Assembly (NCBI RefSeq): GCF_018069875.1
Contig: NZ_JAGQDF010000002.1
Location: 434,001 to 498,000 of the forward strand
Source: Ideonella alba
Lineage (GTDB): Bacteria; Pseudomonadota; Gammaproteobacteria; Burkholderiales; Burkholderiaceae_C
Length of the DNA: 64,000 nucleotides
Reading direction: 5' to 3'
Part shown: positions 41,923 through 61,264 of the stretch, in pieces
Layout of the letters: each line of letters opens with the position of its first letter
How positions within the stretch are numbered: the first letter of the stretch is position 1
Program-made: the position numbers and the translations under genes
Notes under the pieces: model-generated
What the model was told of the DNA's origin: nothing
Seen by the model: only the letters and a program-made list of their open reading frames with translations
Database searches by the model: none

Positions 41923-41942
41923 CGGTGGGGTGGCTGATGGGA
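41923..41942. repeat. attL: left 20-bp direct repeat of the island
   Basis: CGGTGGGGTGGCTGATGGGA is identical to 61185-61204. It copies the last 17 nt of tRNA-His (including encoded CCA) plus three flanking bases. The flanking bases on both sides differ between the two copies, so the repeat is exactly 20 bp. Confidence 0.9.
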
Positions 41943-41992
41943 GACCATTGGCCACCGCGAAACCCCAGCTCTCACAGGCACTTAGAGCCGAC

Positions 41993-42026
41993 GCAACACA
42001 GGTCTGTGCATCAGATTGTGTGACAG
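41993..42026. promoter_or_regulatory. Candidate integrase/excisionase arm sites, left end
   Basis: GCAACACAGGTCTGT (41993-42007) is an inverted copy, with one inserted base, of the sequence at 61096-61109. TTGTGTGACAG (42016-42026) is a direct copy of 61089-61099. Both lie 50-85 nt inside the att repeat at the left end and 85-120 nt inside at the right end, as expected for arm-type recombinase sites. Confidence 0.5.
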
Positions 42027-42077
42027 GACCGAGCGCACGGCAAGCGCCTGGCAAGGTCGCCAAACCCGGGACCGATG

Positions 42078-42086
42078 TGCTAGATT
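42078..42086 (+). promoter_or_regulatory. Extended -10 promoter of reverse-transcriptase module 1
   Basis: TGCTAGATT fits an extended -10 (TGn plus TATAAT-like). The predicted start, 7 nt later at about 42093, coincides with the first base of the leader's closing stem. No -35 is recognisable. Confidence 0.4.
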
Positions 42087-42092
42087 TGCGGT

Positions 42093-42249
42093 GCCCTGGC
42101 GGTAGGCGGCCCCCCGCTACCTGCAGTCACCTTTCACTGTCACTCTGTGACCTCCTGTAGGCGTCCTGGTCAACTTGGTGTATCCCTGTTGGCAGCGCCA
42201 TATTGGTTAGCTGAATATCCGCGCGCTTGCGCGCTGGGCGCGCCAGGGT
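42093..42249 (+). ncRNA. Predicted structured leader RNA of module 1 (retron-ncRNA-like)
   Basis: GCCCTGGCG (42093-42101) can pair with CGCCAGGGT (42241-42249) to close a 157-nt region. Inside are a hairpin GGTAGGCGG / CCGCTACC with a CCCC loop (42101-42121), GTCAC-TCT-GTGAC (42139-42151) and GCGCGCTTGCGCGC (42220-42233). The 3' arm ends 4 nt before the ribosome-binding site of the next small gene. Retron ncRNAs have such a long-range a1/a2 repeat; no homologous msr/msd sequence is recognised, so this remains a structural inference. Confidence 0.4.
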
Positions 42250-42268
42250 TGTGAAAGGAATCGTTGAG

Positions 42269-42412
42269 ATGAAGAAGAGACGTCCCAACGACCGCCCTGT
42301 TCGCGATTGGTTTGGGATGGGCATTGCACTCGTGCAACTCATCACTGCCATCGTGAACGCGGTCTTCAACTATCAGCTAGCCAATGCCCGCGAAGTGGCT
42401 GCACAAGTTTGA
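42269..42412 (+). CDS. 47-residue basic amphipathic/membrane peptide, module 1
   Basis: MKKRRPNDRPVRDWF is strongly basic and leads into a 20-residue hydrophobic or amphipathic stretch (GMGIALVQLITAIVNAVF). The start ATG 42269 has GAAAGGAA at 42253-42260, part of a 12-nt segment identical to that before the peptide of module 2. The stop overlaps the reverse transcriptase by 29 nt. The pattern resembles small membrane toxins or effector peptides; no family is recognised and function is inferred only. Confidence 0.6.
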   Translation: MKKRRPNDRPVRDWFGMGIALVQLITAIVNAVFNYQLANAREVAAQV

Positions 42413-43145
42413 GCGAAAGCCAGGTCGTTGGGTTTTCGAGCCTTCCCCTGAAGCGCGCGCAGAGGGCGTCGAGGTCAAAGAGCTCGTCGAGTCCCACTGG
42501 AAGGCCCCAAGCTACTACTTTCACCTGCGGCAGGGAGGCCACGTCGCCGCACTGATGCGCCACCAACGAAGCACCTGCTTCGTCAAGGTCGACATCGCCG
42601 ACTTCTTCGGCTCAGTCAGTCGCTCCCGCATCTCGCGCGTGCTGAAGGAGTTCGTCAGCCACGCGGAGGCCAGACGGATTGCAACGGCGAGCACGGTTCA
42701 ACATCCCGAAGACCCAGCCCGGCAAATCCTGCCATATGGGTTCGTCCAGTCGCCGCTGCTGGCCTCGCTCGCGTTGCACAAAAGCGGGCTGGGCAAGTAC
42801 CTCGACCAACTGCATCGCGAGAACAGCGTCGTCGTCACCGTGTACGTCGACGACATCATCGTGTCGGGTAACGACCCCGAAGAACTAGGTGACGTGCTGA
42901 CGACGATGAAGACCAAAGCGCAGCGGTCGCGCCTCGCCTTCAGCGACGACAAGGAACAGGGCCCGGCGGCAACCATCTCCGCGTTCAACATCGAACTTGC
43001 GGCAGGTACTCCGCTTTCGGTCCTGCCACCGAAGCTGGCCGAGTTTCGTGAAGCCTTCCAGGCCTCGACGAGCGAACTGCAACGCGCGGGCATTCAGGGC
43101 TACGTGCGCAGCGTGAACCCGGTTCAGGCGGACTCGTTGCCCTGA
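42384..43145 (+). CDS. Compact reverse transcriptase (253 aa), module 1
   Basis: Motif A is FVKVDIADFFGSV (Asp 70), motif B is LPYGFVQSPLLASLAL (116-131) and motif C is VTVYVDDIIVSG with Asp 156-157, so the polymerase palm is complete. It lacks the retron NAxxH and VTG signatures and ends GIQGYVRSVNPVQ. No maturase, endonuclease, primase or nitrilase domain is attached. At 253 residues it is shorter than usual retron (about 300-320) or DRT enzymes. It probably belongs to one of the unclassified bacterial RT groups. ATG 42384 lies inside the upstream peptide gene, so translation may be coupled. Confidence 0.88.
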   Translation: MPAKWLHKFERKPGRWVFEPSPEARAEGVEVKELVESHWKAPSYYFHLRQGGHVAALMRHQRSTCFVKVDIADFFGSVSRSRISRVLKEFVSHAEARRIATASTVQHPEDPARQILPYGFVQSPLLASLALHKSGLGKYLDQLHRENSVVVTVYVDDIIVSGNDPEELGDVLTTMKTKAQRSRLAFSDDKEQGPAATISAFNIELAAGTPLSVLPPKLAEFREAFQASTSELQRAGIQGYVRSVNPVQADSLP

Positions 43146-43160
43146 CAGGCCGGACATGTC

Positions 43161-43191
43161 CGCGAAAGGCGCCCGATGGGCGCCTTTCGCG
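43161..43191. terminator. Hairpin terminator between module 1 and ardC
   Basis: A 14-bp perfect stem, CGCGAAAGGCGCCC / GGGCGCCTTTCGCG with a GAT loop. It fills the gap between the converging stops at 43145 and 43192 and can act in both directions. Its core AGGCGCCCGA recurs in the terminator after module 2. Confidence 0.75.
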
Positions 43192-44097
43192 TTACGGGCT
43201 GCCCTCGACCTGCGCCGACTCGACGCCGCACAGCAGGTCGGCCGCCCGCTGGGCCTGAGCGGCGGCGGTGAAGATGGCGCGCTTGTCGTGCTTCAGCACG
43301 GCCAGCCACGCGGCCAGGTACGCGGCATGGTCCTCACGCGGTTCCGGGCTGAGCCGGCTGCCGGCGCACACGAAGGCGGCGCCGAGCTCGGCAACGAGCT
43401 CTTCCATCGCGTAGGCCTGGTCGCCGAAGCGCTGGCCGAACTGGCGCGCCAGGCGGTCCGGGTGGCCGGTCCAGTGCACGAGCTCGTGCGCCAGGGTGCC
43501 GAAGTACGCGGCGGCATCGCGGAAACGCGAAGCATCGGGCATCTGCACGAGGTCAGGCCCCGGTGCGTAGAACGCGCGGTCGCCGCCGTGGCGAACCGTC
43601 GCGCCTGCCCGCGCCACCAGGGCCAGCGCGTCGGCGTCGGGCTGGATGGCCGCGGGCACCTCGGGTGCGGCTGGCGCAGCCAGCCCATCCACCTGCTCGG
43701 TGTTGAAGACCGTGTAGCTGCGCAGGAAAGCCACCGCCCGCCGTGCCGGGGCTTCGCCTTCGACCGCCTCGGTGCCCTCCTTGCTGGGGCTGAACTGACC
43801 GGCATAGACCACCATCGTGCCGCGCTCGCCCTTGCGAACCTGCCCGCCCAGCGCCTCGGCCTGGCGGTAGGTCAACCAGGTGCGCGATGTGAAGCCGCGT
43901 TCCATCGCTGCGCCCCACAGCAGCAGAACATTCACGCCACGATACGGCTCGCCGCCGTGCCGGCGGGGCAGCATGCCGCCGCTGGCGGCGCCACGGGACC
44001 ACGGGCACGACCAGGGGCGGACGCCCCGGTCCAGGGCCTCGACGATTCGACGGGTGACCTCGGCGTAGAGGTCGCGCTGCTGTTGCTTGCCTTCCAT
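43192..44097 (-). CDS. ardC: ArdC-like antirestriction protein (ssDNA-binding plus zincin domain)
   Basis: 301 residues. The N-terminal ArdC domain (DLYAEVTRRIVEALDRGVRPW, then YRGVNVLLLWGAAMERGF, then TWLTYRQAEALGGQVRKGERG) binds ssDNA. The C-terminal metallopeptidase-like domain has the zinc motif HELVH followed by GHPDRL and a downstream Glu (YAMEELVAELGAAF). ArdC proteins protect incoming plasmid DNA from restriction. ATG 44097 has AAAGGAG upstream. It sits on the opposite strand between the two RT modules. Confidence 0.85.
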   Translation of the reverse strand: MEGKQQQRDLYAEVTRRIVEALDRGVRPWSCPWSRGAASGGMLPRRHGGEPYRGVNVLLLWGAAMERGFTSRTWLTYRQAEALGGQVRKGERGTMVVYAGQFSPSKEGTEAVEGEAPARRAVAFLRSYTVFNTEQVDGLAAPAAPEVPAAIQPDADALALVARAGATVRHGGDRAFYAPGPDLVQMPDASRFRDAAAYFGTLAHELVHWTGHPDRLARQFGQRFGDQAYAMEELVAELGAAFVCAGSRLSPEPREDHAAYLAAWLAVLKHDKRAIFTAAAQAQRAADLLCGVESAQVEGSP

Positions 44098-44279
44098 GAC
44101 TTGCTCCTTTAGGGCTGGGGGTGCGTGTGGCACCCCGTGCCCGTCGGCGAGACCGGGGGTAGAAGAGCGCAACCGCCGCAGGCCTGGAAGGGGCACACCC
44201 CGGCTGCACGACAGGAAGCTGGGGATGCCAGGCCGGAGGGCACGCCGCAGCGTGCGGACGGTTGCGCGGCGCGAGGGGA

Positions 44280-44358
44280 GACCCCTTAGCGGGGTCATAT
44301 CGAAATTTCGCTGACAGCGAAACACAACTTGCGCTGGGCGAAGTTCTTCGGCTACACT
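44280..44358 (+). promoter_or_regulatory. Control region upstream of module 2
   Basis: The gap 44098-44346 has no gene. It contains a hairpin GACCCC / GGGGTC (44280-44296), a second hairpin TTTCGCT / AGCGAAA (44306-44322) and a candidate promoter TTGCGC (44329-44334) with TACACT (44353-44358) at 18-nt spacing. The hairpins could be operator or terminator sites, for example for the XRE regulator encoded in the module. Transcript start and operator are not proven. Confidence 0.35.
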
Positions 44359-44624
44359 CCGCCCCGAGGCTGACAGAGATAACTGTCGACTGTTGGGGTG
44401 CTACAGCACCCTGTGGGGCCGAAAGGCTCTAACTACTCGCAAGCCCACGCCGCACGGTGCCGGTCCTCCGGTGCGCGGTACGGTTGGGGCCGGTGCGAGC
44501 CTGCCCGGGCGACCCCGGGCAGGCATCTGGAAGTGAAGGGGGTCAACTCGCCGCTTTGCTCTGTTCGGTTGCGGGCGACAGCCACGGCGCACACATCCCG
44601 TGTGCGTTGTTTGGTGCAGCCGAA
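44347..44624 (+). ncRNA. Predicted structured leader RNA of module 2 (retron-ncRNA-like)
   Basis: TTCGGCT-A-CAC (44347-44357) pairs with GTG-C-AGCCGAA (44614-44624), closing about 280 nt. Internal hairpins include GGGTGC-TACA-GCACCC (44396-44411), GGGGCC-GAAA-GGCTCT with a GNRA loop, an 11-bp stem GCCTGCCCGGG / CCCGGGCAGGC (44499-44524) that resembles an msd stem, and CGCACAC / GTGTGCG. The 3' arm runs into the ribosome-binding site of the next peptide. If the promoter at 44329-44358 is right, the 5' arm would lie at the transcript edge, so the exact 5' end is uncertain. Confidence 0.45.
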
Positions 44625-44634
44625 AGGAATCGTC

Positions 44635-44787
44635 ATGAGTGACGTTCTGAAGCCTCCTCAGCGGCGGGCGACGAAGAAGCAACGCAAGAAGTCCTGGTGG
44701 GTGCGTCCCGAGACGTTCCGCCTGGCCACCGCGGTGGTCCGGCTCGTCTCGATGGTCGCCAAGCTGATTGACTTCCTGCTTCGGTGA
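44635..44787 (+). CDS. 50-residue basic amphipathic peptide, module 2
   Basis: The lysine/arginine-rich first half (RRATKKQRKKSWW) is followed by an amphipathic or hydrophobic helix (FRLATAVVRLVSMVAKLIDFLL). The layout matches the 47-residue peptide of module 1: basic head, aromatic hinge, hydrophobic tail. The ribosome-binding segment GAAAGGAATCGT (44622-44633) is identical in both. A membrane-active effector or small RNA-binding partner is plausible; no family is recognised. Confidence 0.6.
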   Translation: MSDVLKPPQRRATKKQRKKSWWVRPETFRLATAVVRLVSMVAKLIDFLLR

Positions 44788-44824
44788 TTCGTCACCCCTT
44801 TATTTCAAATTCGAGAGGCATGCC

Positions 44825-45133
44825 ATGTTGAATCGCGCCCTGAAGCTGCTTCGGACCTACCACCAGTACACCCAAGTGGAGCTGGCCAAGCGCCTTGGGA
44901 TTTCCAACTCGTACCTGAGCGAGCTGGAGAAAGGCGACAAGACGCCCGGGCTGGACCTGCTGGAGCGGTATTCCGAGGTTTTCAAGATGCCCGTGTCCTC
45001 CATCCTCTTGTTCTCGGAGTCCATCAATGAGGACCGAAAGCCCGGGGCGAAGCTGCGGGTGGCGGCGGCGGACAAGATACTGAGGCTGCTTGAGTGGCTT
45101 CAGGAACGCGATGCCGTCGAGCGCGCCGCGTAA
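44825..45133 (+). CDS. XRE-family helix-turn-helix protein, module 2
   Basis: 102 residues. The HTH spans about residues 8-62 (YTQVELAKRLGISNSYLSELEKGDKTPGLDLLERYSEVF), and a C-terminal helix (KILRLLEWLQERDAVE) may dimerise. ATG 44825 follows GAGAGG. It overlaps the reverse transcriptase by 23 nt. From memory, a published retron type carries a small HTH partner beside the RT, so it may be regulator or effector. It has no counterpart in module 1. Confidence 0.85.
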   Translation: MLNRALKLLRTYHQYTQVELAKRLGISNSYLSELEKGDKTPGLDLLERYSEVFKMPVSSILLFSESINEDRKPGAKLRVAAADKILRLLEWLQERDAVERAA

Positions 45134-45992
45134 GGCCTACGCGCTGAATCAGTCGCCGCTCTTCCGCTTGCGCGGCAAGGGGCGGTTTGAGGACGTCATC
45201 GGCGTCAAATGGGAGTCGGTGACGGACCTTCTGGCTGCCGAATCTTTTCGGGTCTGGAAGGGGCCGAAGGACCGGGAAATCCAGGCGCCCATCCATTGGA
45301 TGGCGGCAGTGCACAAGGTCATAGCCGACCTGCTCGCACGCATTGAGGTCCCGGACTACGTGTTCTCGCAGAAGGGCCGTTCGTATGCGGACAACGCGCG
45401 GCAGCACCTCGGTAACCACCCGGTCATCAAGACCGACATCAACAAGTTCTATCCAAGCGTGACCCGGGCCATGGTGTTCCGGATGTTCGTGCGCGACTTC
45501 GAGTGCGCCGCCGATGTCGCGGACCGGCTGGCCGACATCTGTTGCTACAGGCAACTGCATCTGCCTACCGGAAGTCCGCTGAGCGGCCGGGTGGCATTCT
45601 TCGCCGCGAGGGGGCTGTTCGAGGACATCGCCAAGCTCGCAGTTGCCTCAGGCTGCAAACTGACCATCTACGTCGATGACATCGCGCTCTCAGGTCCGAA
45701 CGCCACGAAGCGCCTACTGGGTGAAGTACGCATGCTCATTGCTCGCCATGGCTTGAAGTCCAAGGGCAAGAAGTCGGCCACCTTCGCTGCCGGCGCGCCT
45801 AAGAGTGTCACCGGCGCGGTCATCGTCGGTGAAGAACTGCGGCTGCCAAACGAGCGCCATCGAAAGCTGCATGAGACCCGTTCCGCATACGTCGCCGCAG
45901 ACGGCGATGAGCGAGCGAAGCTCGGCCGCCAGCTGCGTGGACGCCAGCAAGAGGCCGCGCAGATTCTTCGACCCGTGGCGCGGGCGACCTAA
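45111..45992 (+). CDS. Retron-type reverse transcriptase (293 aa), module 2
   Basis: The palm motifs are complete: A VIKTDINKFYPSV (Asp 109), B LPTGSPLSG (151-159), C LTIYVDD (Asp 189-190). NARQH (95-99) matches the retron NAxxH motif, and SVTGAVIVG (232-240) with the following RLPNERHRKLHETRSAY matches the VTG/Y region that binds the ncRNA. YVDD replaces the usual retron YADD. Length is near the retron norm. ATG 45111 has AGGA at 6 nt; a TTG at 45090 is an alternative. It ends 21 nt before a strong terminator. Confidence 0.9.
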   Translation: MPSSAPRKAYALNQSPLFRLRGKGRFEDVIGVKWESVTDLLAAESFRVWKGPKDREIQAPIHWMAAVHKVIADLLARIEVPDYVFSQKGRSYADNARQHLGNHPVIKTDINKFYPSVTRAMVFRMFVRDFECAADVADRLADICCYRQLHLPTGSPLSGRVAFFAARGLFEDIAKLAVASGCKLTIYVDDIALSGPNATKRLLGEVRMLIARHGLKSKGKKSATFAAGAPKSVTGAVIVGEELRLPNERHRKLHETRSAYVAADGDERAKLGRQLRGRQQEAAQILRPVARAT

Positions 45993-46013
45993 CCTGGCAA
46001 CGGTCGTAAACAA

Positions 46014-46037
46014 GAGAGGCGCCCGAAGGCGCCTCTC
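46014..46037 (+). terminator. Hairpin terminator after module 2
   Basis: A 10-bp perfect stem GAGAGGCGCC / GGCGCCTCTC with a CGAA loop, 21 nt after the RT stop. It shares AGGCGCCCGA with the terminator of module 1. The following bases are C-rich rather than T-rich. Confidence 0.65.
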
Positions 46038-46175
46038 CCCCCTTGCGGGGCCGTACAGTGCATTTTCCGGACGGGGCCGAGGCCACGAACGGGCGCGCGG
46101 GAACGCGCCTAATCAGCTTGTCCCGATTGCCTGCGGGTCATCGTCTGAGGGTCTACCTAGGGTAGCTCCCAGGTT

Positions 46176-47069
46176 TTAAACGGCGCGCTGCCTCAGGTCG
46201 TGTAACGTCGTCACGCTGGAACCGACCCACACCAGCGGGTCGCGCAGCTCGACCGCGACGAGCTTGACCCGGCGTTCCAGCGTTACGCGTTCCTGCAAGG
46301 GTCGGTGGCCCCACAGCGAAGTCGCGGCCAGCAGGATACGGCGGGCATGGTTCAGCTCGCGGTCGTAGACGAAGACCAAGCCTCCAAGCCGGTAGGCGCC
46401 GGCCTGGTCGAGCGGCTGGCCGACGAGCTCTGCCCACCGCAGGCAGGCCGCGAGCTGCGGCAGCGCCTTGCGGGCGGCCTCGACCTCGCACACCTCCACC
46501 GTCGCCGGCCCGTCGGCGCGGCGCTGCCAGACAGCACCGTCTGGCATCTTGCGCAGCATCTTCACCATCCGGTCCACCGGGAACGGCGCCTTGCGCCGCA
46601 GCAGCAGGTACTCCCCTGCGGTCTGGAAGCCCTCGACCTGGCGTTCAATGAGGTAACGCGTGGCGAGAGTTCGGTGGAAGAAAGTGCTGCCGGACACGCT
46701 CGACAGGTCTAGCGTGTGCTGCGCCTCGATGCCCCGGGTCTCCAGCCAGGTTGCGCCGACACGGGTCAGGCACAGGCTGCGCGAGCCCAGCGCGTTACGG
46801 CGTTCCAGCAGCAGGCCCTCGGCGACCAGCCGGCTGGCAACGCGCCTACTGACCTGCTCGGCGTATCGCGCCTTGGGCCAGACGGCGCGGGCCAGCTCGG
46901 CGATGCGGACGTGTCCATGGTGGGCGACGACACGCATGCACTTCAGCTCGTTGATGCGGGCCTGCTCGCGCCCGCTGCGGCTGTTGGTTTGTCGCGGCGC
47001 GCGTGATGGTGGCGCGGCGGCGGGCGTGGCGCCCAGCACGCCCTGCAAGTCGGAGGTCGAGACTTTCAT
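46176..47069 (-). CDS. Winged-helix protein of unknown function
   Basis: 297 residues from ATG 47069 (GGAAG upstream; ATG 47093 also possible). Residues about 45-115 look like a winged helix (MRVVAHHGHVRIAELARAVW, then VSRRVASRLVAEGLLLERRNALG, then LTRVGATWLETRGI). This is similar in style to replication-relaxation proteins of mobile elements. The remainder is a mixed domain ending VTTLHDLRQRAV. It is divergent from the alpA-like gene, with 170 nt between. I do not recognise a characterised homologue. Confidence 0.65.
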   Translation of the reverse strand: MKVSTSDLQGVLGATPAAAPPSRAPRQTNSRSGREQARINELKCMRVVAHHGHVRIAELARAVWPKARYAEQVSRRVASRLVAEGLLLERRNALGSRSLCLTRVGATWLETRGIEAQHTLDLSSVSGSTFFHRTLATRYLIERQVEGFQTAGEYLLLRRKAPFPVDRMVKMLRKMPDGAVWQRRADGPATVEVCEVEAARKALPQLAACLRWAELVGQPLDQAGAYRLGGLVFVYDRELNHARRILLAATSLWGHRPLQERVTLERRVKLVAVELRDPLVWVGSSVTTLHDLRQRAV

Positions 47070-47239
47070 GGTGGCTTCCGGTGGTAGGTCCACTGTCTAG
47101 CCACCGTCTCGCCGGCCACCGCCGTCCCGAGTGCCTGCGCGTCATTGCGCGAAGGCTAAAACGGGGGGCTTCACTCCATCGAGCCGGCAGTTCCGCCGCG
47201 CTTCGCCCGACGGGCGCACCCGTCACCTGGAGCATCTCG

Positions 47240-47431
47240 ATGGACAAGTTCATCCCCAAGTCCGCGCTGGTCGAAGCCCTCGGCGTCTCGACCCGCACCC
47301 TGGAAAACTGGATTGCGCAGCGCGCATTCCCCGCCCCGCGCCACCTGGCAGGCAGCCGGCTGTCGTTCTTCGACGTGGCCGAGGTTGAAGCCTGGCTGGA
47401 ACGCGAGCTCACCGAAGGGGGCCAGGCATGA
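47240..47431 (+). CDS. AlpA/excisionase-like HTH protein
   Basis: 63 residues with a MerR-like winged HTH (SALVEALGVSTRTLENWIAQRAFPAP, then SRLSFFDVAEVEAWLER). Small proteins of this kind control integrase and excision in P4-like elements. It overlaps the next gene by 4 nt (ATGA). Strongest candidate for the island's excisionase or master regulator. Confidence 0.8.
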   Translation: MDKFIPKSALVEALGVSTRTLENWIAQRAFPAPRHLAGSRLSFFDVAEVEAWLERELTEGGQA

Positions 47432-47925
47432 AGCGCCCTCGCAACCGCATCGCCAGCACCGAGAACGACCGCTGGTTCGAGCGCTACGGCAAGGGCGGGT
47501 ACTTCTGCCTGCCGCGGGCGATGCTGTTCAACGTGGTCGACTGCATCGACAACGCGGCCATGTATGTGTACCTCGCTCTCGCCTCCTGCCACTACGAGGG
47601 AAACACGACCTACGCTGGGCCGCACATCGCCAAGCTCACGGGCAAGGACGAGCGGGCTGTCCGCGGCCATCTCGCTGACCTGGAAACGCTGGGCCTCATC
47701 CGCCGAGAGCCGCTTGGCCAAGGCTTCAAGGTGCTGTTCCTGTGCCCCGACCGCCAGCGCATCAAGGACGGTGCAGCCGAAATCACGTCACGCAAGCTGG
47801 CGCGGCAGCAGCGCCGCGCGCTGGCTCAGAGGGCAGCGCCATCAGCGACGGATGGCGGTCACCAACGAGAGTTGCTGAATCCGCCGCCGAACGAACCGCC
47901 GCTGGAGAAGCCGCCAGCATCGTGA
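47428..47925 (+). CDS. Winged-helix replication/regulatory protein
   Basis: 165 residues. The N-terminus WFERYGKGGYFCLPRAML is followed by a winged HTH (AGPHIAKLTGKDERAVRGHLADLETLGLIRREPLG) and a basic, Pro-rich disordered tail. Proteins of this shape beside AlpA often act in replication initiation of islands; that is inference. Its last 67 nt overlap the convergent membrane-protein gene. Confidence 0.7.
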   Translation: MKRPRNRIASTENDRWFERYGKGGYFCLPRAMLFNVVDCIDNAAMYVYLALASCHYEGNTTYAGPHIAKLTGKDERAVRGHLADLETLGLIRREPLGQGFKVLFLCPDRQRIKDGAAEITSRKLARQQRRALAQRAAPSATDGGHQRELLNPPPNEPPLEKPPAS

Positions 47926-48311
47926 CGGTGGTCGGAGAAGCCATAGGCATTCCCGTTCACGTCCACATGGCCGGTGGCCATGGGCGTACCGTCAACGTTG
48001 ACCGCCGGCCCGCGGCGGTCATTGCTGCCGTGCCGCCGGCGGTGACCGTCGTCGTCATCGCCTGGGGCGTACCTCGCAGGGGCAGTCAAGCCCAGGCGCT
48101 GGCTCAGGCTGCCTGGCCCGCGCAGGCTCTGCACCGCAAGCACCAGCGCCCAGACAACACCGACCAGGAACACCACGGGGCCGACCAGAATGGCCAAGAG
48201 GTCCACCGGCTTGCCGAAGACACGAATGCCCGGGTTGAACAGCAAGCCGCCGAAGAACAGGAAGGCCCCGGCGAAGGTCAGCAGCAACCAGGTGTACGAG
48301 CGTTGGGGCAT
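47859..48311 (-). CDS. Small two-helix membrane protein with Gly/His-rich tail
   Basis: 150 residues. Two membrane helices (TWLLLTFAGAFLFFGGLLF and LLAILVGPVVFLVGVVWALVLAV) are followed by a polar, Asp/His-rich segment and a Gly/Ser-rich end (GGFSSGGSFGGGFSNSRW). No family is recognised. It overlaps the 3' end of the convergent winged-helix gene by 67 nt, which is unusual and lowers confidence. Confidence 0.55.
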   Translation of the reverse strand: MPQRSYTWLLLTFAGAFLFFGGLLFNPGIRVFGKPVDLLAILVGPVVFLVGVVWALVLAVQSLRGPGSLSQRLGLTAPARYAPGDDDDGHRRRHGSNDRRGPAVNVDGTPMATGHVDVNGNAYGFSDHRHDAGGFSSGGSFGGGFSNSRW

Positions 48312-48673
48312 GAGAGTTTGTGACTGTTGGGCCGGTGCCTTCCGTCACGCAGGTATCGGCCCGACGGGCAGGGACTTGAGCCCGGCACCGGGCCAGACGC
48401 TCGTCACACTCGCGCGCTTCTGCAGGCTTCAGCCTGCCTGACACGGGGCGGGCCAGGCCCGCCCTCGCGTCGCCCCCAGCCCAGGCCCCCCTGCCTTGCG
48501 GGTGCTCTTCACCGGGCGACAGCCGCCCGCAGGGCGGCTTCTTCTTCGGTTCTCAGAACAGGTTTTCTGCAACCGCTTCTGGTCTGAAGGACTTTGGTTA
48601 TTCGTGGGTGGTGGTCACGCGGTAACGGTATCCGGGTGGTGGTCACCCGGCACCGTTACGGCGTGACGTCGTT
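48312..48673. other. 362-nt gene-free gap containing a cruciform
   Basis: No convincing gene lies here. At 48614-48667 a near-perfect three-tier palindrome (7 + 8 + 7 bp) is present: GTCACGC / GCGTGAC, GTAACGGT / ACCGTTAC, CCGGGTG / CACCCGG with a 5-nt loop. GGGTGGTGGTCAC occurs twice (48606-48618, 48634-48646). It begins 6 nt after the res stop and may be a terminator, an operator or an origin-like element. Confidence 0.6.
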
Positions 48674-51600
48674 TCAGATGACGCCAGTCAGCTTGTCGAG
48701 CAGCTTCATCAGGTCCGGCGGCTGCCGGACGATGTGATAGCTCCACCGCCCGAAGCGCCCGTCGTTGTTGACGGCGGTGCACCAGCGGTGCGCGGCCTGG
48801 GCCTTCACCTCGGCGTCACCGGGCTGGCCCTTCACCTCGACCATCAGGCGCTCGCCCGTCGTCAGGTCCACGATGAAGTCGGGCAGGTAGCGGCGGCGGA
48901 TGCCGTCCTTGCGATACGGCACGATGAAGCCCAGGTGGTCGTTCTTGACCCACTTGGCGACACCCTCGTGGGCGTCCAGTGCGGTGGCCGCTGCCTGCTC
49001 CCAGGTCTTCGTGTCCGCGACGATGGCGTTCAGGTGGCACTTCTGCACCGGCCAGGGTTGCCGCCCGGTGAAGAACTCGACATGCCGCGTCGAGCGCTCG
49101 CCCGCAGGCCCCGGCGTGATGATGGGCCGCTCTTGCGTCTTGCCGCTCTCGTCCACCGGCATCAGCGAGTCGAACAGGATGCCCACCGCCTGCTGGAAGT
49201 ACGGGTTCAGCGCCACGTCCTGCGGCGCCCGATTGCCCGACAGCTTCAGCTTCTCGGCCAGGAACCGGGTCGTGTAGCCCAGGAGTTGCGGGAACAGGCG
49301 GTGCGTGGGGATGACATCGCCACGGTCGGCCAGCCACTGCTGCGTCAGCACCTTGGCCATGGTGAAGGCCACCTGCTGCACCCGCACCTTGGCGCGCCAC
49401 TGCTCCAGGTTCACCACGTCGGCCGCGCCGGGGCCGTAGGCGGCCAGGGCACCGTCCTGCGTGGTCAGGCCCTTCATCAGCGTCACATCGGGCACCGTCA
49501 TGGGGTTCAGCTCCAAGGTTGGCACCTTGGGCCAGTCCATGGTGAGCCGCGTCACGCCGGGGTCGGTGTAGCCCTCCACCACCGGGAAGGCCAGCTCGTA
49601 CTGCGCCTTGGCCGGCACGGCGTAAATCTGGTTGGCCGGCGGTGACGGCGGCTGCTGGGCGCCGCCCTCCACCTTGAACGGGATGAGCTCGAAGGGCACG
49701 CCGAAGACCTTGGCAGTCTCTTCGCGGAAGAAGCCGGTGGCCTCGTCCACCGCGTAGGACGTGCGCCGCAGCGCCCGGCCGACCACCTGCTCGCACAGCA
49801 GTTGCGAGCCGAACGGGCGCAGGCCCACCACGTGCGTCACGGTCGTGGCGTCCCAGCCCTCGGACAGCATGGCCACGCTGATGATGCAGCGCACGTCGCG
49901 GCCCGGCGGCACGCTGGCGTCGATGGTCACCAGGCCGTTGTCGTCGTCCTCCAGGGCCTTGCGGTTGTGCTTCTCGACCATGGCCACGTACTCTTCGGGC
50001 ACCTTGTTGCCCGGCCAGCCGGTCTTGCCGATGGTCTCCAGCACGAAGCGCAGGCGCCGCGCCTCGTCGTTCTTGCCGCCGCCTTCCGCGATGTCCTCGG
50101 CCACCTTGCTGTCCACCCGCACGGTCCACTCCCGGCCCGGGGCGTTGCGGAACTGCTCGGGCGCCGCGCCGTAGGTGGCGTTGCCGTTGGCCAGCCAGTC
50201 GTACAGCTCCTTGGCCAGCGCGGTGTCGCGGCACACGATGATGAAGACCGGCGGCACGTCGGTCTTGCGGTGGCCGGCCTTGAACTGCGCCGACCACTGC
50301 TCGGCCGTCTTGCGCCACTCGTCAGCCAGTTGCACGATGGGCTGCGTGGCGTAGCGCATCAGCACGTCGGGCGTCAGCTTGCCGCTGTGGCCTTCCTTCT
50401 CGGCAATCTCCTGCACCCACCGCCACACGTTGAAGTAGGCCGGGGTCTCGGTGCCGCCGATGTCCTGCGTGGGGAGCTGCGGAATCTTCACCAGGCCGGC
50501 TTCGATGGCCTCCAGCAGGCTGAAGTCGGACACCACCCACGGGAAGGGCTTGCCCACCTCGTTGCCGCTGCCCTGGATGAAGAACGGCGTGGCCGACAGG
50601 TCCACGCACAGCCGCACGCCGTTGGTCCGGCCGCCCAGCGCCTTGTTGATGCGGTCGAGACCCTCAATCCACACCGTGGCCTCGCGGGCATCGACCTCGG
50701 CCGTTTCCTCGTCGATGGCGAAGGTGTCCTCGGCGTCGAGCTTGCCGCGCCGGTAGGCGTGGTGGGCCTCGTCGTTCATCACCAGGATGGCCGAGCTGCG
50801 CCCCTTGCGGTTGCCCAGCACGCGGCGCAGGAAGGCGGTGTCGCTCTCGTAGTAGCGCACCTCCTTCACCTCGAAGCCGGTGAGCTGGCCCTTGTTGTCC
50901 CGCAGCTCGCGCAGGATGTCGAAGGCGCCGGTCAGCGCCTGCTGCCGGATGTCGGCCTCGGTCACCGCGTCCTTGCCGCCCACCTTCACGGTGCGCAGCT
51001 TCTCCATCGGCACGCCGCGCTTCACCACCTTGGCCGACGTGCCGTTCACATCGGTCAGCTCGCGCCGCTCCAGGTTGTGCCAGTTGGTGATGAAGACCTC
51101 GCCCTTGCGCAGGTCGGGCATGCGGTGCAGCGGCACCAGTTGCCGGGTGCGGTACAGGCTGAGCTCGTCCAGGTTGGGGTCGAGCTCGCGCAGCCGGTCG
51201 CGGATGGTGACGTTCGGGCAGACGATGAGCACCGTGTCCGAGTAGGCCGAGGCCTGCGGCTGCGCCACCTTGTTCAGGATGGACCAGGCCGACAGCATGC
51301 CCATCACAGTGGTCTTGCCGCTGCCAGTGGCCATCTTCAGCGCGTAGCGCACGAAGGCCTTGTACCCGTCTGCCTTGGCGTCGTCGCCCGGCTCGTCGCT
51401 GGGCACGTTGATGCCCTGCTTCAGGTCGTCTGGCCCTTCCACCAGGAACAGCACCGTCTCCACCGCTTCGAGCTGGGCGAAGAACAGCCGCGGCGAGCGG
51501 TCAGGCGAACGCCACAGTTCCAGCAGTTCCCGCGTTACCTTGGTGGCGCCGGCATAGTCGCGCTCGCGCCACTCGCGCAAGCGCTGGCGGATGAGGTTGG

Positions 51601-51829
51601 CCAGGTCCAGCAGGTATTCCTGCCCCTTCGATGCGTCGTCCAGCAGCGACTGCTGGCCCTTGGCCTTGCGCCCGCGCGCTGCACGGTCGGGCACACGGAA
51701 GAAATACGAGGCCAAGCGCCGGCCTGGCCGCTTCTCCGGGTGCTTGCCCTCTTCGATGTGCCAGTGGAAGGCCGGCGGGTCGTAGGGGCTGTTGATGATG
51801 GGCGCTTCGACGGCGTTGATTTGGCTCAT
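48674..51829 (-). CDS. res: Type III-like restriction enzyme subunit (DEAD helicase-nuclease)
   Basis: A 1051-residue superfamily 2 helicase. Walker A ATGSGKT is at 167-173, the DEAH-type box is NDEAHH, motif III is SATP and motif VI is QVVGRALRR. The C-terminal PD-(D/E)XK nuclease has YLPDFIVDL followed by LMVEVKGQ. It would cut DNA after ATP-dependent translocation together with Mod. Its ATG overlaps the DUF262 stop by 4 nt in a three-gene operon. It is intact and of the usual length. Confidence 0.88.
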   Translation of the reverse strand: MSQINAVEAPIINSPYDPPAFHWHIEEGKHPEKRPGRRLASYFFRVPDRAARGRKAKGQQSLLDDASKGQEYLLDLANLIRQRLREWRERDYAGATKVTRELLELWRSPDRSPRLFFAQLEAVETVLFLVEGPDDLKQGINVPSDEPGDDAKADGYKAFVRYALKMATGSGKTTVMGMLSAWSILNKVAQPQASAYSDTVLIVCPNVTIRDRLRELDPNLDELSLYRTRQLVPLHRMPDLRKGEVFITNWHNLERRELTDVNGTSAKVVKRGVPMEKLRTVKVGGKDAVTEADIRQQALTGAFDILRELRDNKGQLTGFEVKEVRYYESDTAFLRRVLGNRKGRSSAILVMNDEAHHAYRRGKLDAEDTFAIDEETAEVDAREATVWIEGLDRINKALGGRTNGVRLCVDLSATPFFIQGSGNEVGKPFPWVVSDFSLLEAIEAGLVKIPQLPTQDIGGTETPAYFNVWRWVQEIAEKEGHSGKLTPDVLMRYATQPIVQLADEWRKTAEQWSAQFKAGHRKTDVPPVFIIVCRDTALAKELYDWLANGNATYGAAPEQFRNAPGREWTVRVDSKVAEDIAEGGGKNDEARRLRFVLETIGKTGWPGNKVPEEYVAMVEKHNRKALEDDDNGLVTIDASVPPGRDVRCIISVAMLSEGWDATTVTHVVGLRPFGSQLLCEQVVGRALRRTSYAVDEATGFFREETAKVFGVPFELIPFKVEGGAQQPPSPPANQIYAVPAKAQYELAFPVVEGYTDPGVTRLTMDWPKVPTLELNPMTVPDVTLMKGLTTQDGALAAYGPGAADVVNLEQWRAKVRVQQVAFTMAKVLTQQWLADRGDVIPTHRLFPQLLGYTTRFLAEKLKLSGNRAPQDVALNPYFQQAVGILFDSLMPVDESGKTQERPIITPGPAGERSTRHVEFFTGRQPWPVQKCHLNAIVADTKTWEQAAATALDAHEGVAKWVKNDHLGFIVPYRKDGIRRRYLPDFIVDLTTGERLMVEVKGQPGDAEVKAQAAHRWCTAVNNDGRFGRWSYHIVRQPPDLMKLLDKLTGVI

Positions 51830-53574
51830 GCCACGCCCCCCGACACCATGGCGGCCAGCTCAGGGTTCACGGTGCGCCCGCAAATCTCCCAGATGCGCTG
51901 CAGGCGCCGGTCGCGGAAGCTGCGGTAGGTCGCAACGTCGAACACCAGCTTCTTGGTGTCAGCCGCGAATTCGTCCAGCAGCAGGTGCTTCTCGATGGGC
52001 GACCCATAGGACTTGAGACGCCCGAAGTAGCTGTCGGGCAGCTCGGCACGCTTGCGGATGTTGTCGGTCGCGCCCACGAATCGGTAATTCCCGAGGGTGT
52101 TCACCTCGGCACTGCCGAGTCCCAGCTTGGTGGACAAAGCGTGCCGCGGATAGATGTGGTCGATGTGCGGCTCGTTGCCCTTGTACTTCACGTCGAATGG
52201 CGACGAACCCATCTGGTCCACGTACACCAGGTTCAGCAGCAGGAACCTCAAGCGCGTCTGTTCCAGGTGGAACTTCTGCAACTCCGTCGGGTATCCGCGC
52301 CCGATGAAGTAGTCCTTGACCCCTTGCATCGGAAATCCGCCCGGGGACGGCTGACCGACCACCGAATGCAGGCCGTTGATGACCTTGTCGGTGCCCTGCG
52401 AGTACCAGCCAAAGAGCTGGGCCTTGTAGTAGTAGCCGCGCATCAGCGCACGGCTGCGCTCCGTGGGCTTCGGGTTGAAGTACAGGTAATCGAACAGCGG
52501 GATGAAGCTGTTGTGGCTGCGAACCACCTTCTCGGCATAGACCTTCAGGTCTGTCTTGAGGAAGTCGCGCAGCTCCTGGAACGCGGCCTCTGCCCGGTCC
52601 CAGTTCGCCTTCATGTCCGCCAGCAGCTTGGTCCCGTCGGCGCCGGTGAACTTCTCGGCCGATGCCTCGGCACCGCGCCCATGCACCACCAGCAGGCACT
52701 TCAGCGGGAACGTCTTGTCGAAGCCGATGTTGGTGCTGTTCAGCAGCTCGGTGGTGTCTTCGATGGCCTCCTCGATTTCGTCCCAGCCTTCCTTCATGGC
52801 TGCGAACATCAGGTCGGACGCATCGAGCTTGGTGCCGCCGGAGTTCACCCGGACGAAGATGTCCAGCACGGTCCCGTAGGTGTAGTTGTTGGCCACACCG
52901 TCGAGCTCCTGAATCCAGAAGTGCTTGTCCTCGCGCAGCAGCGAAACCAGTTGGCCGAAATTGCGCCGCACGCGCTTCTGGCGCGCCTTCTGTTCCTGGC
53001 TCGTCGGCTGCTTCTCAGCTGGCAGCGCATCGTCGGCCTCATCGAGGCTGTCGTTCATTTCCTCCGACAGTTCCTCGGCCACGCGCTGGGCGTCCTTGCC
53101 CACCAGGTCGGCCACCCGGTACCACGGGCGCGGCAGCGCCACTTTCGAGAACTTCAGCGTGTACAGCAGTCCATCGTCGGACAGCGCTGCGCCGCTGCTG
53201 GCATCGAAGTAGGCCTCCAGGCGTTCGCCGTCGGGGCCCTTGATGGCCCCGGCAAATGTGGCGTACAGCGTCTGCAGCCGCTGCTGACCATCAAGAACGA
53301 ACGTCTTTTCGCACCCCGCCTTGCTGATGTTCGGCTCGTAGTAGTCGCTCAGGTCGGGGTCCCACTCGACCTCCTCCATGAACTTGCGGGCCTTGATTTC
53401 GTCCTTGGTCTTCCAGAACAGCAGCGTCTGGATGGGGTAGTTGCGCATCAAGCTGTCGAACAGCTTGAGCATCTGCTCTTCCTCCCAGACGAAGGGGCGC
53501 TGGATGTGCGGAAGGAACAGGCCCTTGTTGATGACCTGGATGAGGTTGTAGAGCGAGCTCGGCTTGTAGCTCAT
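51826..53574 (-). CDS. DUF262 / HNH (GmrSD-like) protein in the R-M operon
   Basis: 582 residues. The N-terminal DUF262 domain shows IQRPFVWEEEQMLKLFDSL and the nucleotide-binding DGQQRLQTLY (95-104). Towards the C-terminus HIDHIYPRHALS fits a DUF1524-type HNH nuclease. This pairing is known from type IV, modification-dependent enzymes such as GmrSD and BrxU. Here it lies between mod and res with 4-nt overlaps on both sides, so it is a built-in component of the operon. Its role (nicking, control or anti-phage back-up) is unknown. Confidence 0.82.
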   Translation of the reverse strand: MSYKPSSLYNLIQVINKGLFLPHIQRPFVWEEEQMLKLFDSLMRNYPIQTLLFWKTKDEIKARKFMEEVEWDPDLSDYYEPNISKAGCEKTFVLDGQQRLQTLYATFAGAIKGPDGERLEAYFDASSGAALSDDGLLYTLKFSKVALPRPWYRVADLVGKDAQRVAEELSEEMNDSLDEADDALPAEKQPTSQEQKARQKRVRRNFGQLVSLLREDKHFWIQELDGVANNYTYGTVLDIFVRVNSGGTKLDASDLMFAAMKEGWDEIEEAIEDTTELLNSTNIGFDKTFPLKCLLVVHGRGAEASAEKFTGADGTKLLADMKANWDRAEAAFQELRDFLKTDLKVYAEKVVRSHNSFIPLFDYLYFNPKPTERSRALMRGYYYKAQLFGWYSQGTDKVINGLHSVVGQPSPGGFPMQGVKDYFIGRGYPTELQKFHLEQTRLRFLLLNLVYVDQMGSSPFDVKYKGNEPHIDHIYPRHALSTKLGLGSAEVNTLGNYRFVGATDNIRKRAELPDSYFGRLKSYGSPIEKHLLLDEFAADTKKLVFDVATYRSFRDRRLQRIWEICGRTVNPELAAMVSGGVA

Positions 53575-56381: not shown

Positions 56382-56671
56382 GACGTGCTCCCGTTCGGTT
56401 ATTGCATGACGTAACCGACAAGGATACCGGCCGAATTGCTGCATTACGCCGGTCGAATCGACATCGGCGTTATCGCGCGCCAGCGCGTGCAGGTGCCACG
56501 CCGCAGGACGTGGGGCAAGGCGTCCAGCCGCAGCCCCGCGCGCTGCACCGTGCCCACACGGTCAACGCGCGGCAGGGGGGCGCCGCAAGTCAGGTTTCGC
56601 CCCAACGAAATCAGGCCCGCCCACGGGCCGGTGACGCAGTGGGGGCGGAGCCCCGCCCCACCCGCTGAAAG

Positions 56672-56769
56672 CGGGCGGGCAACCCGGGCGATGGCCGACG
56701 TCCAGGAGGTGCCTGCGGGTGGCGCGAACAGCGGCACCAAAGGCAAGCAGCGCGCGGGTTGCCCGCCCG
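56672..56769. repeat. 15-nt inverted repeat closing a 68-nt loop
   Basis: CGGGCGGGCAACCCG (56672-56686) and CGGGTTGCCCGCCCG (56755-56769) are perfect complements. The loop contains a second inverted pair, GGTGCC / GGCACC. It could be an RNA structure on either strand or a DNA cruciform. Confidence 0.6.
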
Positions 56770-57050
56770 TTGGCTCTGCCGTGCAGAGGCAGCGGGATGG
56801 GGCGCGGTATTGGCAAGGGGATGAGGGCGTGCAGCCCGAAACACGGCGTGTCGCCCTAGCGACCGTGAGCCGGGGTGCCCCGCTCCCCCACGGTGGAAGC
56901 GTCTGCTTCTACCGTCTCGGCCTGGGCGACGGTCTGCAAGACGGTCGCCGGTGACGGTCTGCCACCAAGGCCGGCCGTGAACTATTGCCTTGCCAAGCTG
57001 CGCGGCGGCGATACAGTTCGGCTCCTACTTCATCAGCGCACCTCCCGCGC

Positions 57051-57100
57051 AAGAACACGCTCCCCCCACCCAAGCTGGTGGCATCGGGGTCGTGTTCTTT
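57051..57100 (+). terminator. Possible intrinsic terminator within the gene-free region
   Basis: AAGAACACG (57051-57059) pairs with CGTGTTCTT (57091-57099), extended by CCCC / GGGG, and is followed by TAAAAAT. If real, it would end a plus-strand transcript that carries no recognisable protein, hinting at an RNA gene upstream. Confidence 0.4.
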
Positions 57101-57410
57101 AAAAATCCCTGCCTGTCGGCATACCCCAGACCCGCGCTTAGAACAGACTAACTAGCCTTCGCGCCCTGGGGTCGGCGCCGACAAGCCAACTCCCAACTTC
57201 CAAGGCCTGGCCCCACAGCTCCGTGGTGCGCCAGTAGACGCCACCCGTTCGACGGGCTCGGCGTTGGGCACCTCGTGCCCCGCATGCTCCAGCCGTTCTG
57301 GCCTTGAGCTGCCGACTTGCGCTGCCTGAGTCTTCGGCAGCGCTCCACCTCACACATCAAGCCTTGCCGGCGGCGTCGCCGGCAGGGCTTTCGTCTTTGG
57401 AGACTTCAAC

Positions 57411-59240: not shown

Positions 59241-59271
59241 GTGAAGCAATGACGGGGCGTGTCCCCACGTA

Positions 59272-59309
59272 CAAAGCGGCACCAAGCCATCGGGCCTGGT
59301 GCCGCTTTG
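59272..59309. terminator. Bidirectional terminator between the ATPase and integrase genes
   Basis: A 13-bp perfect stem CAAAGCGGCACCA / TGGTGCCGCTTTG with a 12-nt loop, followed by CTTTG on the plus strand. It sits between converging stops at 59240 and 59345. Confidence 0.75.
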
Positions 59310-59344
59310 CTTTGTGCGGCGCCGTTGGACCCGGCGCCCTGCCC

Positions 59345-61072: not shown

Positions 61073-61088
61073 GGTCTGTTCCACAAGG

Positions 61089-61109
61089 TTGTGTGACAGA
61101 CCGTGTTGC
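61089..61109. promoter_or_regulatory. Candidate integrase arm sites, right end
   Basis: TTGTGTGACAG repeats 42016-42026 directly, and ACAGACCGTGTTGC is the inverse of 41993-42007 with one base missing. The sites overlap the integrase leader, so they could also serve autorepression. Confidence 0.5.
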
Positions 61110-61133
61110 AACCGCGGTTTAGCCTAGAAGCAA

Positions 61134-61167
61134 CAAGGCCTTGATTCCGTTGGGAATCAAGGCCTTG
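61134..61167 (-). terminator. Island-borne replacement terminator for tRNA-His
   Basis: A perfect 15-bp stem CAAGGCCTTGATTCC / GGAATCAAGGCCTTG with a GTTG loop. It lies 21 nt beyond the 3' end of tRNA-His on the island side, and on the minus strand is followed by TTGCTTC. It probably replaces the chromosomal terminator displaced to 41888-41913. Confidence 0.65.
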
Positions 61168-61184
61168 CGTGCGCTAACGGTGTT

Positions 61185-61204
61185 CGGTGGGGTGGCTGAT
61201 GGGA
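61185..61204. repeat. attR: right 20-bp direct repeat, inside tRNA-His
   Basis: Identical to 41923-41942. Seventeen of the 20 bases are the 3' end of tRNA-His, so the intact tRNA gene is kept at this junction. Confidence 0.9.
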
Positions 61205-61264
61205 CTCGAACCCACGACGACCAGAATCACAATCTGGGACTCTACCAACTGAGCTACAGCCACC
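61188..61264 (-). tRNA. tRNA-His (anticodon GTG)
   Basis: A 77-nt gene including the extra 5' G (G-1) typical of tRNA-His and an encoded CCA. The acceptor GGTGGCTG pairs with CAGCCACC. The D-arm has AGCTCAGTTGGTAGAG, the anticodon loop TTGTGAT and the T-arm GGGTTCGAGTCCC. It serves as the integration site of the island. Confidence 0.97.

What the first reader, a model, noticed from the sequence alone, without database searches (positions are those of the whole stretch)
42078..46037. Two reverse-transcriptase modules with the same architecture in one island
Within 4 kb, two plus-strand units each show a hairpin-rich leader, an identical ribosome-binding segment, a basic-plus-amphipathic peptide of 47-50 residues, a small reverse transcriptase and a GC-rich hairpin terminator with a shared AGGCGCCCGA core. 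The enzymes are not recent duplicates: one is retron-like, the other lacks retron signatures. Retrons and DRT systems are established phage defences, but I do not know a described system that pairs these two enzyme types, each with its own peptide and leader. The pair could be two independent defences or one two-enzyme system.
Basis: partly seen in the sequence, partly recalled or inferred. Interest (0 to 1): 0.92.

Follow-up and report, generated by a model that had tools for sequence, protein, structure and literature searches.

The report
Two retrons with RNA-gated toxic peptides
A mobile island carries two separate reverse-transcriptase units, one a known kind of phage-defence element (type VI retron) and one from a family that matches no named model in the libraries searched, and in both a folded RNA seems to hold shut the start signal of a small basic, partly hydrophobic peptide.

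Summary
Unit 2 (44307-46037) is a type VI retron (HTH_VI, RT_VI). Unit 1 (42078-43191) belongs to a distinct small-RT family (about 250 aa) on P2-like prophages, plasmids and islands. In 12 members scanned, no PADLOC retron or DRT model fits as it fits its own members. It is nevertheless probably a retron: its RT model matches retron RTs best, and its leader has a strongly covarying a1:a2 stem with a TAG-type motif after it. In beta/gamma members a second segment pairs with the peptide's Shine-Dalgarno sequence, crossing a1:a2 (a pseudoknot). The peptide precedes the RT in 52 of 56 loci and is fused to it in 3. In type VI leaders an anti-SD also covaries and a2 seems to lie inside the peptide gene. 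The units are not a pair: 1 of 56 family-1 loci has a type VI RT. Likely mechanism: retron RNA and RT keep a toxic peptide unmade until phage infection. Toxicity, cDNA and the direction of the switch were not tested.

The parts
41923..41942 (.). Left end of the island: 20-bp direct repeat of the tRNA-His 3' end
   Evidence: Identical to 61185-61204; tRNA-His 61188-61263
42078..42085 (+). Promoter -10-like TGCTAGAT just 5' of unit 1
   Evidence: Sequence; similar TGCTAGTAT in L010 and L011; not found by the consensus scan
42093..42101 (+). Unit 1 a1 repeat (GCCCTGGCG)
   Evidence: Pairs with a2; covaries in 30 leaders and an 18-row alignment
42102..42107 (+). Branch-like motif GTAGGC (candidate priming guanosine)
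   Evidence: TAG directly after a1 in 25 of 30 leaders, read by eye; the other five have TAA, CAG or AAG
42130..42137 (+). Unit 1 anti-SD CCTTTCAC
   Evidence: 8 Watson-Crick pairs with 42251-42258; covaries; present in MFE fold
42220..42233 (+). Conserved GCGC hairpin 5' of a2
   Evidence: GCGC arms invariant in 18-row alignment A3
42241..42249 (+). Unit 1 a2 repeat (CGCCAGGGT)
42251..42258 (+). SD-side strand GTGAAAGG of the peptide
42269..42412 (+). Unit 1 peptide, 47 aa, basic N-terminus, hydrophobic helix, NY motif; predicted effector
   Evidence: 28 aligned peptides with invariant Tyr; 8 synonymous and 0 nonsynonymous differences between L010 and L011
42384..43145 (+). Unit 1 RT (253 aa), start inside the peptide gene
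   Evidence: RVT_1 64 bits; AF2 pLDDT 95.1; best folds are retron RTs
43161..43191 (+). 13-bp perfect hairpin at end of unit 1
   Evidence: Sequence
43192..44325 (-). ArdC-like antirestriction protein between the units; true start probably internal, near 44097
   Evidence: ArdcN and MPTase-PolyVal
44307..44321 (+). Unit 2 operator-like palindrome TTCGCTGACAGCGAA
   Evidence: Like sites in 10 of 13 type VI leaders; only site of TTCGCTNNNAGCGAA in the 5.5-Mb genome
44366..44371 (+). Unit 2 putative a1 (GAGGCT)
44564..44573 (+). Unit 2 local anti-SD strand TTCGGTTGCG
   Evidence: Covaries with SD side in 13 type VI leaders
44615..44624 (+). Unit 2 SD-side strand TGCAGCCGAA
44635..44787 (+). Unit 2 peptide, 50 aa, net charge +10; predicted effector
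44651..44656 (+). Unit 2 putative a2 (AGCCTC) inside the peptide gene
44825..45133 (+). XRE HTH protein (HTH_VI)
   Evidence: PADLOC HTH_VI E 7.4e-36
45111..45992 (+). Type VI retron RT (293 aa) with NARQH and VTG motifs
   Evidence: PADLOC RT_VI 250.8 bits; motifs read in the translation
46014..46037 (+). 10-bp hairpin at end of unit 2
   Evidence: Sequence
61185..61204 (.). Right end of island in tRNA-His; integrase-like ORF at 59345-61111

Best explanation
The two units are independent retron-type defence modules carried as cargo of one tRNA-His island. Unit 2 is a type VI retron. Unit 1 belongs to a retron family not described in the sources I could search (called family 1 here). In each, the transcript starts with an msr-msd-like RNA bounded by a1 and a2, and the effector is the small basic, partly hydrophobic peptide encoded next. 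The RNA hides the peptide's Shine-Dalgarno sequence: in unit 1 through a pseudoknot (a1:a2 crossed by anti-SD:SD), in unit 2 through a local hairpin inside the a1-a2 region. RT translation starts inside the peptide gene in unit 1, so RT and peptide are probably co-regulated. I think the RT bound to its RNA, and its reverse transcription of the msd, keep the peptide unmade; phage damage to this complex opens the ribosome site and the peptide harms the membrane, stopping the infected cell. Shown here: the genes, the pairings and their covariation, the predicted RT fold, invariant catalytic aspartates. Inferred: cDNA synthesis, peptide toxicity, phage trigger, direction of the switch.
Against: No msDNA, toxicity or defence was shown. 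RT1 lacks NAxxH (only the H aligns) and VTG. The unit 1 leader is no more stable than shuffles (z -1.20, 27 of 200 as stable). Own pairing is at or above the 95th percentile of swapped partners in 19 of 30 (a1:a2) and 17 of 30 (anti-SD) only, and is best in its row in 5 of 13 type VI leaders. In the alphaproteobacterial members the anti-SD is not at the msr position (L014: 15 swapped partners better); local pairs there were not tested for significance. No Rfam match in the leaders. Hydrophobicity is moderate: 20 of 28 family-1 and 5 of 13 type VI peptides reach a 19-residue mean of 1.6. One peptide pair (L063/L066) shows pN/pS 1.9. The branch and motif anchors were chosen by eye.
Confidence: 0.6

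Rival explanations
1. Same anatomy, opposite direction: the RNA alone represses the peptide, and reverse transcription during infection removes the anti-SD (by RNase H or DNA pairing) and opens translation, so the cDNA is the activator.
For: The SD is closed in the minimum-energy fold without any protein. In type VI the anti-SD strand lies inside the a1-a2 region that would be copied. I recall, from no call, a preprint title about reverse-transcribed ssDNA derepressing translation of a retron protein; my searches did not find it (the library says it holds no bioRxiv collection).
Against: In type VI the SD and start codon lie 5' of the putative a2 and would be copied too. In unit 1 the beta/gamma anti-SD sits between hairpins that look like msr and is probably not copied (inference).
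Confidence: 0.3
2. Unit 1 is not a retron: the leader is a cis-acting translational regulator and the peptide a leader peptide whose translation is coupled to the RT, which has another role such as a DRT-like reaction.
For: RT1 has neither NAxxH nor VTG; no PADLOC retron model fits the 12 members scanned as it fits its own; the predicted RT start lies inside the peptide gene.
Against: a1/branch-motif/a2 anatomy is that of retron RNA and covaries; retron RTs are the best folds; the peptide Tyr is invariant in 28 with both codons used, TAC 14 and TAT 14, so the constraint is on the protein; peptide fused to RT in L042-L044.
Confidence: 0.2
3. The two units form one two-enzyme system, in the manner of DRT3.
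For: Both are adjacent in the window and in L011; shared 12-mer at the two ribosome sites.
Against: 1 of 56 family-1 loci has a type VI RT; strong HTH_VI match in 1 of 16 records; L010 has unit 1 without unit 2; the type VI loci L023-L028 and L083-L087 show no second RT among their annotated genes within 1.5-2.5 kb.
Confidence: 0.03

Closest known systems
Type VI retrons (Mestre et al. 2020 class; PADLOC HTH_VI + RT_VI)
   Same: Unit 2 matches in gene order (peptide, HTH, RT) and in HTH and RT models. [quoted passage not shown] The Mestre paper itself is not held.
   Different: Covarying anti-SD, a2 inside the peptide gene and the shared operator are additions from this work; my searches showed no print of them. 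Unit 1 has no HTH gene and its RT scores only 53.8 bits on RT_VI.
Canonical retrons with solved RTs (Ec86, Ec78/Eco7, Eco8, Ec83, Ec67)
   Different: RT1 is shorter, lacks NAxxH and VTG, and the effector is a peptide that seems gated at translation rather than a larger protein held in a complex.
DRT2, DRT3, DRT9 (defence-associated RTs)
   Same: RT plus structured RNA; DRT2's RNA is pseudoknotted (abstract of PMC12039810 in a listing).
   Different: Lower fold scores (DRT2 16.5, DRT9 16.0); weak Drt3a score (31.5 bits, cut-off 200); a1/branch/a2 RNA; the two units do not co-occur.
RNA-regulated toxin-antitoxin systems with small hydrophobic toxins (recalled)
   Same: Small peptide whose ribosome site is hidden by RNA structure.
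   Different: The regulating RNA is in cis, is retron-like, and the operon encodes an RT.

Membership tests
Type VI retron (unit 2) | RT of the RT_VI family | tested here: met
   PADLOC RT_VI E 3.6e-75, 250.8 bits over 272 of 279 positions
Type VI retron (unit 2) | Associated HTH DNA-binding protein | tested here: met
   PADLOC HTH_VI E 7.4e-36; operator-like site in 10 of 13 leaders
Type VI retron (unit 2) | Small auxiliary ORF upstream of HTH | tested here: met
   50-aa peptide 44635-44787; an ORF of 41-67 aa upstream of the HTH in all 13 loci read
Retron (unit 1) | RT in the retron lineage | tested here: inconclusive
   Joins sampled retrons with 99.3 support and folds best as retron RTs; but no DGR, Abi or CRISPR RT was put in the tree, and only 4 of its 47 rows outside family 1 and type VI were classified
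Retron (unit 1) | NAxxH motif (PMC4244168 passages: H 100%, A 87%, N 62%) | tested here: not met
   Only H60 aligns and is invariant; A56 stands in place of N (alignments A1, A2; register by eye)
Retron (unit 1) | VTG motif (in 47% of retron RTs, further variants exist); typical, not universal | tested here: not met
   Invariant FN (F201 N202) at the place; no VTG (register by eye)
Retron (unit 1) | ncRNA with a1/a2 inverted repeats and a branch-type motif after a1 | tested here: met
   Covarying a1:a2; TAG after a1 in 25 of 30 leaders; branch chemistry itself not testable
Retron (unit 1) | msDNA (branched RNA-DNA) | not testable with these tools
   Needs RNA/DNA from cells
Type VI retron (unit 1) | HTH gene and RT_VI membership | tested here: not met
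   No HTH gene; RT1 53.8 bits on RT_VI; best E of 12 members 4.4e-23, while four other retron RTs score 326-456 bits on their best type. A sister relation to type VI is not rejected (p-AU 0.66)
DRT3-like two-RT system | Two RTs that co-occur across genomes | tested here: not met
   1 of 56 loci
Retron (both) | Anti-phage defence | not testable with these tools
   Needs infection assays

The most novel reading that the evidence does not exclude
Family 1 is a new retron type, spread over alpha-, beta- and gammaproteobacterial mobile elements, in which the retron's own a1:a2 stem and an anti-SD form a pseudoknot that controls synthesis of a toxic peptide. Together with type VI, where a2 lies inside the peptide gene, it defines a class of retrons that act as translational toxin-antitoxin switches rather than by holding a finished effector.
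Probability: 0.5. Interest if true: 0.85.

Novelty: new variant of a known kind. Interest (0 to 1): 0.7.

Why it matters
Retrons are usually described as holding an already made effector in check (abstract of PMC12548924 as listed). Here the RNA anatomy points to control of effector synthesis, with covarying pairs that make the idea testable base by base. The family is present in sequenced E. coli prophages: 33 of 5,426 complete genomes match one member, 28 of them over at least 80% of the query, so a simple laboratory test is possible. In the E. coli record opened, the peptide is annotated only as hypothetical protein and the RT only as RT domain-containing protein, and the 12 members scanned lie outside the PADLOC models, so annotation that relies on those models would miss the family.

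Tried and rejected
Single two-enzyme system: rejected on distribution. Rfam family for the leaders: none (the only sub-threshold hit, E 0.52, lies in the RT gene). Shared terminator core: slightly enriched at most (27 against 16.0, 3 of 100 shuffles as high). Homology of the two peptides: none detected. RT1 relatives by single-sequence scan of viral contigs: none; the profile scan found 38. RT1 in 150 genomes of the window's family: 6 of 150 matched at E 1e-3, the window's own and five weak ones (44% identity at most); of these five L005, L006 and L008 are types II-A, I-B and V, L009 falls beside RT2 in the tree, L007 was not examined. Family 1 at E 1e-20: 2 of 369 (class) and 7 of 398 (phylum), own genome included in each; G260 and G531 match only in part and G525 has a stop inside. 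HTH_VI matched 14 of 16 records, but one at 119.6 bits and the next at 60.6, as generic XRE proteins would. Alignment A3 does not align the anti-SD register, so only a1:a2 was counted with the pair counter, on 18 leaders that I chose among the beta/gamma ones. Rows dropped: L020 (RT frame broken); L030 (starts near a contig end, peptide not testable); near-copies, so that 38 of 52 leaders were entered and reduced there to 30 by k-mer overlap; L146 (no anchor motif). In one search the branch positions, and the anchors and the a2 window, were set after reading the leaders (one search scanned 80 window pairs first, best z 3.4); swapped-partner controls use the same anchors. One search's codon count mis-set some rows and is replaced. 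A DGR- or Abi-containing tree, DefenseFinder and the Mestre tables were not available or not tried. AlphaFold was run once; no peptide or complex was modelled.
Full report
WHAT IS THERE. The finding lies in an island of about 19.3 kb bounded by a 20-bp repeat of the tRNA-His 3' end (41923-41942 and 61185-61204), with an integrase-like ORF beside the tRNA (59345-61111; judged from its sequence, no family scan named it). The island also holds a type III modification gene (53571-56444, MTase_III 504 bits), a weak type III restriction match (48674-51829, 42 bits), a HEC-05-like gene between them (51826-53574, 212 bits) and an ArdC-like protein between the two RT units. Unit 1: leader, 47-aa peptide, 253-aa RT, hairpin. 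Unit 2: leader, 50-aa peptide, XRE protein, 293-aa RT, hairpin.

UNIT 2 IS A TYPE VI RETRON. PADLOC HTH_VI and RT_VI match at 7.4e-36 and 3.6e-75. RT2 bears NARQH and VTG. RT2 relatives: 124 plasmid records at E 1e-5, all below 60% identity, and 23 phage records. I opened 12 loci of this kind (L023-L028, L083-L087, L146). In 10 of them the gene before the RT is annotated as HTH or transcriptional regulator, in L026 and L085 it is an unnamed protein of like length. PMC8541194 (passages read) had already proposed type VI retrons for MuM16-1 and like elements in P2_2H1 and KS5, three of these phages. Of 13 leaders read (these and the window's), 10 have a TTCGC-N5-GCGAA palindrome about 500-560 bases before the HTH gene. 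The pattern TTCGCTNNNAGCGAA occurs once in the 5.5-Mb genome, at 44307-44321. I infer that it is the XRE protein's operator.

UNIT 1 BELONGS TO A FAMILY WITHOUT A MODEL. Homologues: L010 and L011 (79% and 87%), 9 plasmid records, 13 Klebsiella phage records, 38 viral contigs, and 1 of 369 class and 6 of 398 phylum genomes besides the own one. One member matches 33 of 5,426 complete E. coli genomes, 28 over at least 80%; in strain C2 it lies in a P2-like prophage between ogr and ssrA. All 12 members of alignment A1 match RT_VI among PADLOC models, best E 4.4e-23, together with many other retron models; in RT1 the best match covers the middle of the protein only (56-192). Four retron RTs of other types score 326-456 bits on their best type (I-B, II-A, III-A, V).

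THE LEADER RNA. In the window a1 (42093-42101) pairs with a2 (42241-42249). A TAG motif follows a1 in 25 of 30 leaders, as the branch site does in retrons (recalled). For 30 non-redundant leaders the a1:a2 score is 22.4 with the own partner against 14.3 with partners swapped between leaders; none of 20,000 permutations reached it. Own pairing is at or above the 95th percentile of its row in 19 of 30. On an 18-row alignment 97.1% of cells pair, 6 of 8 pairs change on both sides, 0 of 500 shuffles reach this, and slides by 1-3 columns give 24-39%. A second pairing joins an anti-SD strand, 26 nt after the A of the TAG motif, to the peptide's SD (8 Watson-Crick pairs in the window). Across leaders own 18.3 against swapped 12.9, same permutation floor, 17 of 30 at or above the 95th percentile. 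Shuffled-leader tests combined give 1.4e-8 for SD and 2.5e-14 for a2, though many single leaders are weak or not significant. The order a1, anti-SD, a2, SD makes the two stems cross: a pseudoknot. In the alphaproteobacterial members the anti-SD is not at that place. Short local pairs such as CTCCAT:ATGGAG exist but were not tested for significance. The simple fold of the window leader contains the anti-SD:SD helix but is no more stable than shuffles (z -1.20); the unit 2 leader is (z -4.78).

TYPE VI LEADERS HAVE THE SAME LOGIC WITH A DIFFERENT GEOMETRY. A local anti-SD covaries with the SD side in 13 leaders (20.0 against 14.5, p 5e-5; best in its row in 5 of 13). After a scan of 80 window pairs, and anchored at a purine-rich motif, a strand just 5' of the motif pairs with about codons 3-12 of the peptide gene in 12 of 13 leaders: 16.1 against 12.3, p 2e-5, while three control windows give p 0.20, 0.22 and 0.57. 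The anchors were chosen by eye and L146 had none, so this is strong but exploratory. If these are a1 and a2, the SD and start codon of the type VI peptide lie inside the region that would be copied.

THE PEPTIDES. In family 1 a peptide ORF runs past the predicted RT start in 51 of 56 loci. Of the other five, L033 was stored on the opposite strand and has it, L042-L044, identical there, have peptide and RT fused in frame, and L030 begins too near a contig end. In 28 aligned peptides one Tyr is invariant; it is coded 14 times TAC and 14 times TAT, and follows N in 25, H in 2 and S in 1, so the constraint is on the amino acid. L010 against L011: 8 synonymous, 0 nonsynonymous differences; window against either about 0.5 pN/pS; three further pairs 0.30-0.72; L063/L066 1.9. 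Median net charge +4.5 in family 1 and +8 in type VI; 20 of 28 and 5 of 13 reach a hydrophobic 19-residue mean of 1.6. The two peptide families are not detectably related.

NOT A PAIR. L011 (Roseateles subflavus) shares 42093-48135 with the window at 93.7% and so has both units. L010 shares unit 1 and the downstream flank, with no DNA match over most of ArdC and all of unit 2. Over 56 family-1 loci, window not counted (355 kb in all), only L011 has a type VI RT. Among 16 whole records or genomes only L011's has a strong HTH_VI match. RT2 is 99.3% identical between window and L011 while RT1 differs at 0.49 of synonymous sites. The last 150 leader bases of unit 1 are 95% identical (89% over the last 175), which argues for constraint on the RNA.

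MECHANISM. Shown: gene order, pairings, covariation, predicted fold, unique operator-like site. Inferred: the RNA keeps the peptide's ribosome site closed; RT bound to msr and copying of msd maintain this state; phage attack on the complex releases translation; the peptide acts on the membrane. The direction is open. In type VI, copying would destroy the peptide's start, which favours RT as repressor. The opposite direction is held as a rival at 0.3, partly on a recalled preprint title that my searches did not find.

NOVELTY. Unit 2: member of a known type. Unit 1: I saw no description in the paper searches made (listings, not all papers opened). The library lacks most subscription papers, and the Mestre 2020 classification is not held. 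PMC9122126 (passages read) shows P2-like hotspots as reservoirs of defence systems, which fits where family 1 sits. PMC13405049 (passages read) says retrons are grouped into sixteen subtypes with more being classified, so family 1 may have been named elsewhere.

Noticed in passing
window 41923-61204: Integrative island in tRNA-His with a 20-bp attachment repeat; cargo includes a type III modification gene, a HEC-05-like gene and ArdC.
   Followed up: partly
L042:3851-4759 (also L043, L044): Family-1 peptide fused in frame to the N-terminus of its RT, a natural fusion.
   Followed up: partly
L149:3222-4137: E. coli C2 P2-like prophage: family-1 peptide (WP_000380485.1, hypothetical protein) and RT (WP_000151541.1) between ogr and ssrA.
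   Followed up: partly
window 44307-44321: Palindrome TTCGCTGACAGCGAA, sole site of TTCGCTNNNAGCGAA in the genome; like sites in 10 of 13 type VI leaders.
   Followed up: yes
window 48606-48658: Two 25-bp direct repeats (84% alike) with start-to-start spacing 28, just 3' of the restriction-like gene.
   Followed up: no
L057, L063, L066 leaders: The middle of the family-1 leader (putative msd) holds short tandem repeats such as GGGACTC and ATGGGGTCT units, so the copied region may vary by repeat expansion.
   Followed up: no
L024:72-129 (minus): Rfam terC RNA near the type VI retron of Microvirga terrae.
   Followed up: no
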